The notes beneath the pieces were generated by a model. That model did not search any database and was not told where the DNA came from. It was given only the letters and a program-made list of their open reading frames with translations. Shown in pieces: positions 23,604 through 27,816 of a stretch of DNA of 64,000 nt (positions are counted from its first letter, which is position 1; each line of letters opens with the position of its first letter). The position numbers were made by a program, and so were the translations under genes. This DNA comes from Adineta ricciae (lineage: Eukaryota > Rotifera > Eurotatoria > Adinetida > Adinetidae): contig CAJNOJ010000005.1 of NCBI GenBank assembly GCA_905250025.1, positions 636,999 to 700,998 on the forward strand, given 5' to 3'.

Positions 23604-25643
23604 TTATTTGAGCAAAAAACTACAAACATAGTAAAACGAATTCAGTTGGAGATCATTGATAGAAGATACAAAATCAGACCTGTATGGATAACCGTGATAT
23701 TTTGATCGAAAAACAGAAAGAATATAGCTAAATAACGAGATGACAATAATAAGACCAATAAACGCCATAACGCCTGGAAAAGAGCAACATAAGGTTGTTT
23801 ATGACGTGGAAAATGTTTTAATTACTTCTGCGTTTTCCTTTTTTCGATCGTATTTTCGGTGCTTCATTTAACAGGATCATGCCAACACAAACTCCGAAAT
23901 GTGAAAAAGAAAAGAACAACGAAGTTAAGGAAAATAAACAAAAATATTGTTTCATTCTCTCCTAAAAATCAATCAATCAAAAAAGGATATAGAGTAAGAA
24001 GACCTAAAACGACAAAAAGAAACATTGTTACATTCAAAGATTAAATATTCGCGAAAATAATCATAACAAAAGCAATAGTAATCAGAAGAAAATCATGGCA
24101 ATTCAGAAGTCATTTGAGAACATGACACAAATCTTACGATATAAGTCTCCATGATATACTGATGACCTGAATTGCGACTGATATATTCCTGCAAATGAGA
24201 AACAATTGTTGTCAAATATTGAAGAAAACCAAGAGGAAAATGTTCTCCGTGGAAAGAATTACATGCGTGTATGAACATCTGAATTGCTTATGAATGACTT
24301 TTCATCTGATAACTATTGTTCATGTTAGACTAAACGCTTGATTTTCATCTACGAACTACGTATGTTTCGGCAACATATTGCATTTGGGAATCATTGGCAA
24401 AGAATTCCTGAAAAGAATACGTTTCCACTAATTGTCCCTGCATACACGCATGTAATTACTTTACCGTAGCATCTTTTCGTGGATTCATAAATGGAGGTCC
24501 ATTTATAAGATTCCAGGTTTGTCCGGATATGAAATAGCACACAACACCCTAAATAGAAAAGCGAATGACACTTACAGTGTGTCCTGTTTTTTGGTCGTGA
24601 TTAGCAAATGTTGAACCATGAATGTTGTTCCACATTTGTCCCGAGACAAAAGTTAAAATAGCGAGCTAAAAGCATATTATGACGCAAAATCTCCTCTGCT
24701 GCTCATTTCAACAAGAATAAGTTCGTTTTCGATGGAAAATCTTCAATGCTTACAATAACGATTATTCCCCAAATAAGGTTGTTATACAAAAATGAGAGAC
24801 TATCTCGTTTAAGATAGAGTAAACCAGCGATCATTGCCAAAGCGAAGCCACCGATGAGAACTCCTGAGTAATCCGGTGGACGATAGATTTCAATCTAGAG
24901 AAGAAATGCTTTTGATCCGCAAATTTTGTAGAGGAACATACTCGAATTTCGGTACGATCTTGAACCCATTTGGCTAAGTGATCAGCAGAAAATCCACGCC
25001 TAAAATTTGCTCAAATTCAACCGAAATTTTATCAAATTAGACTCACGCACCGGTTTAAGTCCAACTGATCGCCTTTTTTTGGTTTGGTTTTTGGTGGAAA
25101 ATGAATAAAGACCGGTGCCGAGTTGAGTTTCAACTAAAATAACTCAAATAAACTTTTCCGCAGGGAAAATCAATCACTTACATATTGAAAAACTTCTGCA
25201 CCTTCATCGAAATCAACCATAGCAAAGAAGAGTTTGTTTGAAAATGCCTTTGAATAGCGGTAGCTTTGTGCCACAACTTGAAATTCATCATGTGCGTGTC
25301 TAAATATCGAATGAAACGTAAAAGAAAACAACGAAGTAACTATCATACTTGCACACTCCACATTGTCGTTGTGGTGATAATGCTGTCAACATAATAATCA
25401 TCGAATAGTTTCTCGGTGGTGTTCGAACGAAATGTTTGAACCGTTCACTATTCAAACGAATCAACGAGTTCTTCGATGACCAATCGGTTAACTGTTGAAC
25501 CTTGTCAGCTAAATTGTTCTATAAAAAATTGCAATAAACGAATGTCATTGTTTGAAATCTCGAATCGATCAACTAACATCAGCATGGAGAACGTTGACGA
25601 TAGTACAAGTCCAAAGAAAACATAACCATAGTAGGTAATTCAT
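23604..25643 (-). CDS. MAGT1: MAGT1/TUSC3-type oligosaccharyltransferase subunit (OST3/6 family)
   Basis: ER oxidoreductase subunit of the STT3B oligosaccharyltransferase, helping glycosylate sites near disulfides; MAGT1 has also been linked to magnesium transport. The ATG at 25643 gives signal peptide [21 protein letters not shown] thioredoxin-like domain follows with a CGVC redox pair (RQCGVCKHAHDEF), then [22 protein letters not shown] and [19 protein letters not shown]. Next come membrane segments, and the end [15 protein letters not shown] is almost identical to the vertebrate C terminus. Uniquely, two consecutive coding segments are each present as two similar exons (24576-24665 and 24465-24548; 24357-24407 and 24138-24188), all stop-free and in phase 0. 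The exon after them (near 23.85-23.99 kb) has an uncertain acceptor. Identification is firm; the exon usage is inferred. Confidence 0.93.
24138..24188 (-). other. MAGT1 alternative exon 2B
   Basis: 51 nt encoding [17 protein letters not shown], flanked by TTTGCAG and GTAAGA, phase 0. Aligns with exon 2A (QY-x-x-ETY core). Lies about 170 bp downstream of exon 2A. Confidence 0.75.
24357..24407 (-). other. MAGT1 alternative exon 2A
   Basis: Encodes [17 protein letters not shown] after a TTTTCAG acceptor. The donor is either GTAGTT (48-nt exon) or the weaker GTTCGT (51 nt). Matches vertebrate SSQAQFVAETHI. Upstream member of the second pair. Confidence 0.75.
24465..24548 (-). other. MAGT1 alternative exon 1B
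   Basis: 84 nt, phase 0 at both ends, flanked by CTATTTAG and GTAAAG. Encodes [20 protein letters not shown] and eight more residues ending KDAT. Aligns with exon 1A over its whole length (SGQxWNxIxG core), so it is a tandem exon duplicate. Confidence 0.8.
24576..24665 (-). other. MAGT1 alternative exon 1A
   Basis: 90 nt, phase 0 at both ends, flanked by TTTTAG and GTAAGT. Encodes [20 protein letters not shown] and ten more residues ending TGHT. Corresponds to the vertebrate segment containing SGQMWNHIRGPPY. It is the upstream member of the first duplicated pair; only 27 bp separate it from exon 1B. Confidence 0.8.
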
Positions 25644-26221: not shown

Positions 26222-27816
26222 ATGCCGAATTACTCTAGCTCTTCGGTCAACACGGTCGACTGGGCGATGGGTTATGAGGGTAACATCTTTCCTACACGTA
26301 TGTTCCATCTTACAATTCATTTCTTTGTCTTTCAGGCAGTTGTACAGTCAAACAACGAAATCTTTTAGAAGGTCTACAAGTTTCATCAACACCAACACCG
26401 CCGCCATTTCAGGATTTTATCTCACTTGTTCATACAAAGAAACGAACTCATACAAGTCTAAGTCTTAGCAGTAACAGTAGTGATGGTAGTTATTATCTTC
26501 CACATCAAACTCCATCACCATTACTCGATCATACCAATTACAAATATGCGAAAATTCGTGCACGACCACTTTATAACTTTAATTACAATGAATCAAGTAT
26601 TTGGACACATTCATCTACATCTACGACGGATTCTTTATCGAATGCATTACCATTCGATATGGATGTTGTGAATAAATTTTTTGTGAAAGAAAATAAAACC
26701 ATTCAGCAAAGTCCGCGAACATCATTCTCAACAACATCAATGACCCGATCATTTCAAATACTCGATAAATCGTCTCAAATCACATATGATGTCACCATGC
26801 GTCATTTAATTCAATTATTATCGAAAACACACTCAACTATTGATGATGTTCTTCGCGGAGTCGATACAGGCGATATCAACAGTGAATGGTAAGATGGATT
26901 TCAATTCTCTTCTTTATTGTTTGTTCTACCTAGGCTTCAATGTGTCCAACGTTTAAATAAACAGTTTCAAAAGCATTGCAAAAACAAACTTCAATTCGAA
27001 ACTTTTAATCTCGAACATTTACACGAACTCAATCCCGTTGAACAATTCTTCGTACAACTCCTTCGTATACCAAATTACAATTTTAAATTGAAATGTTACC
27101 AATATCGTGATGAATCTCATTCCCAATTACTCTTATTAAATCAAATTATCGATCAGCTATTACATGGAATCAATCGCATTCTTAATCACGAACATTTACC
27201 GCATATCTTGCAAATCTTATGTCTTTTATACAACATTGTCTCGAATAAGTGTGTGCCCGGTCTGGATTTCATTTCGTTAGTCGATGCATTGAATTCGCCG
27301 ACAAATCAGTCGAATAAAACAGTTGCACATGTTTTAGTTGAAATTCTTGATAAATACTATCGAAATACGTTGGTTCATACGATTAACGATGAAACGTTGA
27401 TTGAATTGAAGAAAGTCCATACAATTAAATACGATAAAATCTGTGCGGAGATCCGCGAAATCTATGAACAATATCAGCAAATGACATATGAATACTCTCT
27501 GTTAAAAAACAATTACGATTTACCATTATTTATCTCGTCGATGCTCTCTGAGAGCAAAATTCAATTCGAAAACTTCTTTGAAAAAGAAAATCTGCTGAGA
27601 AAAGGTGAACGAGACCTCGCTGCATATTTCTGCTCGAATGATTTATCAGTTGATTGTTGTTTATCAATGGTTGGTCAGTTTATCGATAAACTTCGGTTAG
27701 CAAATTTGGAAAACACGAATGAACAGCAGCGAAGGTTGTCAGTCAAAGGAAATGAACGTCAACGTTCAACGTCATTGTTGATAAACACTGCCGCTTCGTT
27801 TTTATCATGTGTTTGA
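26222..27816 (+). CDS. Divergent formin (FH2 domain), copy A
   Basis: ATG at 26222 (MPNYSSSSVNTVDWAMGYEG). An intron follows to SCTVKQRNLL, and a second intron splits a Trp codon after DINSE. The FH2 domain is recognisable: a lasso-like SSIWTHSS, the core DVTMRHLIQLLSKTHSTIDD, NPVEQFFVQLLRIPNYNFKL, and the C-terminal ERDLAAYFCSNDLSVDCCLS followed by VGQFIDKLRLANL. FH2 domains nucleate and ride growing actin filament ends. The usual GNxMN signature is replaced (LYNIVSNKCVPGL), and there is almost no FH1 polyproline (TPTPPPF only). The protein ends soon after FH2. It is tail to tail with copy B, with 226 bp between stops. Subfamily undetermined; FHDC1-like order is possible. Confidence 0.8.

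What the first reader, a model, noticed from the sequence alone, without database searches (positions are those of the whole stretch)
24138..24665. Two consecutive duplicated exon pairs in MAGT1/OST3, with a 27-bp spacer that would force mutually exclusive splicing
Exons 24576-24665 and 24465-24548 encode alternative versions of one segment ([10 protein letters not shown] versus [10 protein letters not shown]). Exons 24357-24407 and 24138-24188 encode alternatives of the next (QYVAETY versus QYIMETY). All four are stop-free, phase 0 and flanked by splice signals, so any A/B combination keeps the frame. Including both members of a pair would duplicate a segment that vertebrate MAGT1/TUSC3 has once. 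The gap between the first pair is 27 bp, too short to be spliced as an intron, a known way to enforce exclusivity. The result could be up to four isoforms differing in a membrane segment and lumenal loop of an oligosaccharyltransferase subunit. I know of no such arrangement in this family.
Basis: partly seen in the sequence, partly recalled or inferred. Interest (0 to 1): 0.78.

Follow-up and report, generated by a model that had tools for sequence, protein, structure and literature searches.

The report
Rotifer MAGT1 with two either/or exons
In what is probably a bdelloid rotifer, the gene for a protein-glycosylation subunit carries two neighbouring pairs of interchangeable exons, one pair too close together to be joined and the other flanked by two competing RNA stems, so that one gene probably makes alternative versions of a part that sits in the membrane beside the enzyme.

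Summary
Confirmed and extended. The minus strand holds an intact MAGT1/TUSC3 (OST3/OST6) gene with two adjacent tandem exon pairs, 1A/1B (90/84 bp) and 2A/2B (51/51 bp). All four are phase 0 with splice signals, and every A/B combination stays open. A 94%-identical copy (C2) keeps all four. An older copy (C47) has one of each, at the same exon lengths. The 1A-1B gap is 27 bp; the other 20 GT-AG introns of C5 and C47 are 44-168 bp.

Intron 1B-2A is complementary to intron 2A-2B (stem S1, loops out 2A), and intron 2A-2B to the intron after 2B (S2, loops out 2B). Of 123 intron pairs in C5 and C47, only these two beat all 300 shuffles; 0 of 4000 random genomic triplets match both. The stems cross, as in the "bidirectional pairing" model of Drosophila srp. 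Prediction favours S2 at equilibrium. S1 covers the 1B donor, so the two choices may be coupled. I had no transcript data; mutual exclusivity is inferred.

The parts
23604..25643 (-). MAGT1/TUSC3 (OST3/OST6) gene, start to stop codon, 14 exons counting all four alternatives
   Evidence: spliced frames open; human MAGT1 6s7t_H 361 bits; PF04756 over cut-off; exon lengths E2-E10 equal to those of copy C47
24576..24665 (-). exon 1A (90 bp), lumenal end of helix 2 and start of loop, the more human-like version
   Evidence: 1 synonymous and 0 non-synonymous differences to C2
24549..24575 (-). 27-nt gap GT...AG between 1A and 1B
   Evidence: shortest other GT-AG intron in C5 and C47 is 44 bp; the mid adenine of the gap is G in C2
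24465..24548 (-). exon 1B (84 bp), alternative to 1A
   Evidence: 0 synonymous and 2 non-synonymous differences to C2
24441..24464 (-). arm U of stem S1, starting at the 1B donor; imperfect extension to 24486 inside exon 1B
24357..24407 (-). exon 2A (51 bp; 48 bp if the donor is GTAGTT)
24274..24356 (-). arm L of stem S2, starting at the 2A donor
24251..24273 (-). arm R of stem S1, next to arm L; imperfect extension to 24224
24138..24188 (-). exon 2B (51 bp), alternative to 2A
24032..24110 (-). arm D of stem S2, in the intron after 2B

Best explanation
A MAGT1/OST3 gene with two adjacent mutually exclusive exon pairs controlled in two different ways. Pair 1 (1A/1B): the 27-nt gap is too short to be spliced as an intron, so a transcript can use 1A or 1B but not join them. 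Pair 2 (2A/2B): two crossing intron stems compete. S1 (U-R) loops out 2A and draws the 1B side toward the 2B acceptor, giving 2B. S2 (L-D) loops out 2B and draws the 2A donor toward the next exon, giving 2A. L and R are adjacent in the 2A-2B intron, so forming both needs a pseudoknot. Since arm U includes the 1B donor, S1 should affect 1B as well: it either favours 1B-2B joining or masks the 1B donor and favours 1A-2B. The products differ in the lumenal end of transmembrane helix 2 and the loop to helix 3. Shown: exon anatomy, open frames, complementarity beyond chance, its persistence in copy C2, its absence from single-exon copy C47. Inferred: that the RNA folds so in the cell, mutual exclusivity, coupling, and any difference in protein function.
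For: Exon anatomy, homology and frames. Dinucleotide shuffles: S1 -34.7 against -21.1 (sd 3.2), S2 -66.6 against -40.0 (sd 4.8), 0 of 1000 each; in C2 -39.4 and -63.7, 0 of 1000 each. Of all 123 intron pairs of C5 and C47, exactly these two reach 0 of 300 shuffles. Random genomic triplets: 30 of 4000 reach S1, 17 of 4000 reach S2, 0 of 4000 both. Randomly placed C5/C2 substitutions keep the combined pairing as well as observed in 15 of 1000 and 2 of 1000 trials in the two directions. The two introns that hold the arms are 168 and 134 bp where most of the gene's introns are 44-60 bp. Layout equals the bidirectional pairing model of srp exon 4 (PMC6071210).
Against: No transcripts. Only one pair of close copies, so no real covariation: some substitutions keep pairs as G-U, several break pairs, and S2 over its full length is not depleted of substitutions (7 of 21 in 162 of 359 positions, P 0.19). 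Taken singly, the substitution tests are weak in three of four cases (S1 56 and 224, S2 83 and 4 of 1000). The longest unbroken run of S2 is 10 bp, which 188 of 3000 random places reach. Predicted equilibrium favours S2 strongly: S1 core pair probability 0.003 in C5 and 0.11 in C2. S1 pairs 5 of the first 6 bases of the 1B donor, which could block rather than help 1B. The 2A donor is weak, and 1B has 2 non-synonymous and 0 synonymous differences between C5 and C2. Copy C47 lives without the extra exons.
Confidence: 0.7

Rival explanations
1. The exons are alternative and mutually exclusive, but splicing factors and splice-site strength decide 2A/2B, and the intron complementarity is incidental or a by-product of inverted duplication.
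For: Only two close copies carry the stems; equilibrium prediction favours one stem; S2 has broken pairs in C2; strong inverted repeats do occur elsewhere (17 of 4000 random places reach the S2 energy).
Against: Exactly the two intron pairs flanking 2A and 2B stand out among 123; the pairing outlasts 21 intron substitutions better than random placement; the stems begin at the donors of 1B and 2A.
Confidence: 0.15
2. One or more of the four exons is in decline (2A or 1B first in line), so that mostly one isoform is made.
For: Weak 2A donor by U1 pairing (-1.7 or -1.4 against -4.6 for 2B and -7.3 for 1A kcal/mol); 1B has 2 non-synonymous and 0 synonymous differences between copies; C47 has single exons.
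Against: All four are open and recognisable after synonymous change near or at saturation, with pN 0.42 against pS 0.72 for 1A/1B and pN 0.40 against saturated pS for 2A/2B; 1A, 2A and 2B have only a synonymous difference each between C5 and C2.
Confidence: 0.12
3. 2A and 2B are both included in series, lengthening the lumenal loop.
For: The 168-bp intron between them can be spliced and the frame stays open.
Against: Human MAGT1 and copy C47 have the segment once; the series form splits the match; either stem would skip one of the two.
Confidence: 0.05

Closest known systems
Bidirectional RNA pairing at Drosophila srp exon 4 and similar clusters (Yue et al. 2016, as described in PMC6071210; the original was not read)
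   Same: Two complementary intron pairs around two alternative exons; the middle intron holds the downstream-pairing element before the upstream-pairing one; both at once would need a pseudoknot.
   Different: Rotifer, another gene; the upstream arm covers the donor of an exon (1B) that belongs to a second alternative pair; no experiment and no covariation across species here.
Steric exclusion of neighbouring exons (donor too near the branch point; PMC5740500 counts distances under 50 bp in human)
   Same: 27 bp between 1A and 1B leaves no room for an intron.
   Different: Bdelloid introns are short anyway (most 30-100 bp, PMC5916493), so the margin is smaller than in human; it stands directly before a second pair of another type.
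Ost3/Ost6 in yeast and MAGT1/TUSC3 in human
   Same: Same protein family; two versions of this subunit exist and only one sits in a complex (PMC7226087 passages).
   Different: There the versions come from separate genes; here part of one gene is alternative, beside a second gene (C47).

Membership tests
MAGT1/TUSC3 (OST3/OST6) | Sequence match over the whole protein and Pfam PF04756 | tested here: met
   6s7t_H 361 bits over 3-301 of 302; PF04756 over cut-off
MAGT1/TUSC3 (OST3/OST6) | Thioredoxin-like CXXC motif | tested here: met
   CGVC aligned to human CVVC; that this is the defining motif is recalled
Tandem mutually exclusive exons | Neighbouring homologous exons of similar length and equal phase | tested here: met
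Tandem mutually exclusive exons | Exactly one member of each pair in each transcript | not testable with these tools
   no RNA data
Steric exclusion (1A/1B) | Gap shorter than the organism can splice | tested here: inconclusive
   27 bp against 44-168 bp for the other 20 GT-AG introns of C5 and C47; a scan of 101 kb shows a peak at about 48-64 bp but counts are too small to fix a minimum
Bidirectional RNA pairing (srp type) | Two complementary intron pairs, each looping out one exon, crossing in the middle intron | tested here: met
Bidirectional RNA pairing (srp type) | Pairing conserved with compensatory changes between species | tested here: inconclusive
   only C5 and C2 carry the cluster; joint pairing kept better than random, no compensatory double change that keeps a pair
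Bidirectional RNA pairing (srp type) | Each stem activates its exon in minigenes | not testable with these tools
   needs a bench test
Docking site-selector (Dscam exon 6 type) | One common docking site pairing with a selector at each exon | tested here: not met
   the two stems use four different arms; intron 1B-2A against the intron after 2B is at shuffle level, 432 of 1000
U2/U12 incompatibility | Mixed U2 and U12 sites within the cluster | tested here: not met
   cluster introns are GT-AG without the ATATCC or GTATCC start; the AT-AC intron lies one exon downstream

The most novel reading that the evidence does not exclude
The two exon choices are one switch: a two-state pre-mRNA, with S1 on the 1B donor and S2 on the 2A donor, couples both pairs so that the gene makes two matched subunits (1A-2A and 1B-2B) rather than four, a within-gene counterpart of the yeast Ost3/Ost6 swap that resets lipid-oligosaccharide docking or translocon contact.
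Probability: 0.22. Interest if true: 0.82.

Novelty: new variant of a known kind. Interest (0 to 1): 0.62.

Why it matters
The papers I saw describe competing-structure control of exon choice mainly in insects, with some vertebrate cases (PMC6071210, PMC8042237 passages, PMC5740500 passages). An srp-like pair of crossing stems in a rotifer would suggest that the design arises repeatedly when exons duplicate. Here it stands beside a sterically exclusive pair and shares a donor with it, so the coupling of two exclusive choices becomes testable in about 660 nt. The swapped part is meaningful: by the ungapped part of the alignment, 1A/1B corresponds to human MAGT1 residues 225-254 and 2A/2B to 255-271. 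In yeast, Ost3 helix 2 helps form the putative docking groove for the lipid-linked oligosaccharide, and helices 3-4 contact Sec61 (PMC7226087 passages). OST complexes with Ost3 or Ost6 differ in turnover and substrate specificity (PMC8191290 abstract). A natural set of exon swaps could show which short stretch matters.

Tried and rejected
Repeat or transposon origin of the stems: a 601-bp query (24100-24700; arm D lies mostly outside it) hits only C5 and C2, so arms U, L and R are not a dispersed repeat by that search; arm D was not searched on its own. U2/U12 incompatibility and a single Dscam-type docking site: not met, see the membership test. Temperature switch: forced S1 minus forced S2 stays positive from 4 to 37 C (C5 4.5-7.6, C2 1.1-2.6 kcal/mol), so no support. 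Further species: protein scans of viral contigs and genome contigs gave 1 and 14 pattern matches, none a relative by tblastn; the genome search states that this genome has no relatives held. Minimum intron length from 101 kb of held DNA: too few counts. Structure prediction was not run: the isoforms are spliced, so the DNA does not give them letter for letter.

Literature, open-access library only, listings judged by title and abstract start: 'mutually exclusive' with rotifer and splicing (15 of 15 listed); at least two of MAGT1, TUSC3, 'mutually exclusive exon' (15 of 110 listed, the exon term 0 times in those); oligosaccharyltransferase with 'mutually exclusive exons' (7 of 7); bdelloid with 'alternative splicing' (20 of 35); tandem exon with OST names (12 of 141). 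None of those listed describes this arrangement; the unlisted ones were not seen.

Full report
WHAT IS THERE. The minus strand of 25643-23604 is a complete MAGT1/TUSC3 (OST3/OST6) gene: 14 exons if all four alternatives are counted. The part from exon E2 on (302 residues, 1A-2A form) matches human MAGT1 (6s7t_H) with 361 bits over residues 3-301, the CXXC motif included, and PF04756 is over its cut-off. All seven splice forms written out stay in frame without a stop: the four A/B combinations, all four exons in series, and the forms lacking both members of one pair. Frame alone therefore enforces nothing.

HOMOLOGY. 1A and 1B share 11 of 28 aligned residues, 2A and 2B 7 of 17; in each case 0 of 2000 shuffles score as high, and both members of each pair also resemble the human segment. 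A 1A-2A C-terminal half scores 151.7 bits against human MAGT1 and 1B-2B 136.1 bits, each as one alignment. With all four in series the match splits in two, 129.1 bits in all. Each member is thus an alternative version of a segment that the human protein has once.

COPIES. In the genome (130 Mb, 1033 contigs) three copies were found. C5 is the window. C2 is 94% identical over 2.2 kb including introns, with all four exons open and the 27-bp gap. C47 is an older paralogue (66-76% DNA identity in the matching blocks) with a relative of the window's neighbouring gene close by. A DNA search with C47 returned no fourth copy. In C47 the exon lengths from E2 to E10 equal those of C5 (170, 118, 83, 58, 141, 90, 51, 13, 75, 94, 16), but there is one exon 1 (90 bp) and one exon 2 (51 bp), with introns of 54, 44 and 60 bp around them that leave no room for remnants. 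Synonymous differences are near or at saturation between 1A and 1B (pS 0.72, pN 0.42) and between 2A and 2B (pS over 1 by this count, pN 0.40), against 1A-C47 pS 0.62, pN 0.25. The duplications are therefore old, perhaps older than the C5/C47 split, in which case C47 lost the extra exons; 17-30 codons do not settle this. Between C5 and C2, 1A, 2A and 2B have one synonymous difference each and no non-synonymous one; 1B has two non-synonymous and no synonymous one, so constraint on 1B is the least clear.

ORGANISM. A bdelloid spliced-leader pattern, typed from recall, has 44 matches (41 with 1 mismatch, 3 with 2) and 0 for the reversed control. With short introns and a near-identical plus a distant copy, a bdelloid rotifer is the likely source; this is an inference.

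PAIR 1. The 27-nt gap is GT...AG. The other 20 GT-AG introns of C5 and C47 are 44-168 bp. In bdelloid genomes most introns fall in 30-100 bp, with medians of 55-67 in the four species tabled (PMC5916493, passages), so 27 is below, but not far below, the published range. Human exclusive clusters are counted as sterically constrained when the donor to branch point distance is under 50 bp (PMC5740500, passage). In C2 the gap's mid adenine is a G, so the 1B branch point may lie inside 1A, which would rule out 1A-1B joining; that is inference. If retained, the gap carries an in-frame TAG.

PAIR 2. The 2A-2B gap (168 bp) can be spliced, so spacing is no explanation. By eye I saw that the start of the 1B-2A intron is the reverse complement of a stretch in the 2A-2B intron (17 consecutive Watson-Crick pairs). 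Repeat search and duplex prediction then gave two stems. S1: U 24464-24441, extending imperfectly to 24486 in exon 1B, with R 24251-24273, extending to 24224; it loops out 2A. S2: L 24356-24274 with D 24032-24110; it loops out 2B. L and R are adjacent in the 2A-2B intron, and U-R and L-D cross.

IS IT CHANCE? Shuffles that keep dinucleotides: S1 -34.7 against -21.1 (sd 3.2) and S2 -66.6 against -40.0 (sd 4.8), 0 of 1000 each; in C2 -39.4 and -63.7, 0 of 1000 each; the other four C5 pairs and two C47 pairs in that call lie between z +0.05 and -1.12. Because S1 was first noticed by eye, I then tested all 123 intron pairs of C5 (78) and C47 (45): exactly two reach 0 of 300 shuffles, and they are S1 and S2; two others pass z -3 (3 and 1 of 300). 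Against random places in real sequence, the 17-bp run of S1 is equalled 1 time in 3000, but the longest run of S2 (10 bp) 188 times in 3000; the energies are reached 8 and 2 times in 1000. In a larger sample S1 is reached in 30 and S2 in 17 of 4000 triplets, and both together in 0 of 4000; of the 10 strong S2 cases printed, 5 come from the two spliced-leader loci, which hold inverted repeats.

SELECTION. Placing the C5/C2 intron substitutions at random gives a combined pairing as good as observed in 15 of 1000 trials (C5 to C2) and 2 of 1000 (C2 to C5). Singly the tests are weaker: S1 56 and 224, S2 83 and 4 of 1000. The stem cores have 1 of 21 substitutions in 126 of 359 positions (P 0.001, borders chosen afterwards), while S2 over its whole length is not depleted (7 of 21 in 162 of 359, P 0.19). 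Some substitutions keep pairs as G-U, several break pairs, and no pair shows a compensatory double change.

HOW IT MOST LIKELY WORKS. Folding the 661-nt stretch gives S2 in the minimum of both copies; forcing S1 costs 3.6 kcal/mol in C5 and 1.1 in C2, and core pair probabilities are 0.99 (S2) and 0.003 (S1) in C5, 0.89 and 0.11 in C2. A C5 stretch one base longer gave 4.5, and 6.0-7.6 at 4-25 C. At equilibrium S2 would thus prevail, above all in C5; S1 can form first in transcription, because its arms are made before arm D, or with the help of proteins (inference). The base of S2 lies on the 2A donor and ends 28 nt before the next exon, on a linear path of 353 nt. The base of the S1 core lies on the 1B donor and ends 62 nt before exon 2B (35 with the extension), on a linear path of 276 nt (from coordinates). 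This is the bidirectional pairing arrangement of srp exon 4: two complementary pairs, the downstream-pairing element before the upstream-pairing one in the middle intron, joint formation impeded by a pseudoknot (PMC6071210; abstract, introduction and discussion read). I infer that S1 gives 2B and S2 gives 2A. Because S1 pairs 5 of the first 6 bases after 1B, it either couples 1B to 2B by proximity or masks 1B; the sequence does not tell which. The weak 2A donor (U1 pairing -1.7 or -1.4 kcal/mol against -4.6 for 2B, -6.6 for 1B and -7.3 for 1A) fits an exon that needs help from S2, or an exon in decline.

WHAT IT MIGHT DO. By the ungapped part of the alignment, 1A/1B corresponds to human residues 225-254 and 2A/2B to 255-271, the lumenal end of helix 2 and the loop into helix 3 (helix placing partly recalled). 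In yeast, Ost3 helix 2 helps form the putative docking groove for the lipid-linked oligosaccharide, helices 3-4 contact Sec61, and each OST complex has either Ost3 or Ost6 (PMC7226087, passages); the two complexes differ in turnover rates and in substrate specificity (PMC8191290, abstract). So the swap may tune the STT3B-type complex. That is inference.

NOVELTY. Both mechanisms are known separately. I found no report of such exons in this gene family or in rotifers in the searches named under Tried and rejected, whose listings were partly capped. The new elements are the host group, the gene, and a stem arm that sits on the donor of a second, sterically exclusive pair; I call it a new variant of a known kind. 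The main gap is the lack of any transcript and of a second species with the cluster.

Noticed in passing
window 23901-23990 (-), after a 13-nt exon at 23991-24003: An AT-AC intron with U12-type signals (ATATCCTT start, TTCCTTAAC branch-like site, CAC end; consensus recalled) follows a 13-nt microexon; it is kept in C2 and C47 (86 nt), and the genome has two U12 snRNA loci over the cut-off. Bdelloids are reported to have extreme but incomplete loss of minor introns (PMC10639083, passage).
   Followed up: partly
G000 contigs C6, C8, C43, C77, C79, C99 (e.g. L039, L040): Spliced-leader copies often lie as inverted pairs, mostly about 150 nt apart, in arrays.
   Followed up: no
window 24138-24665: Swapping 1A-2A for 1B-2B flips the better yeast match in the PDB: Ost3 33.3 and Ost6 25.9 bits become Ost6 31.0 and Ost3 24.9 bits. 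Differences this small may mean nothing.
   Followed up: no
window 26893-27816 (+); G000 C5:668242-669048 (-): The neighbouring long open frame has a 40%-identical relative a few kb away in the opposite orientation on C5 and C2, and one near the C47 MAGT1 copy.
   Followed up: no
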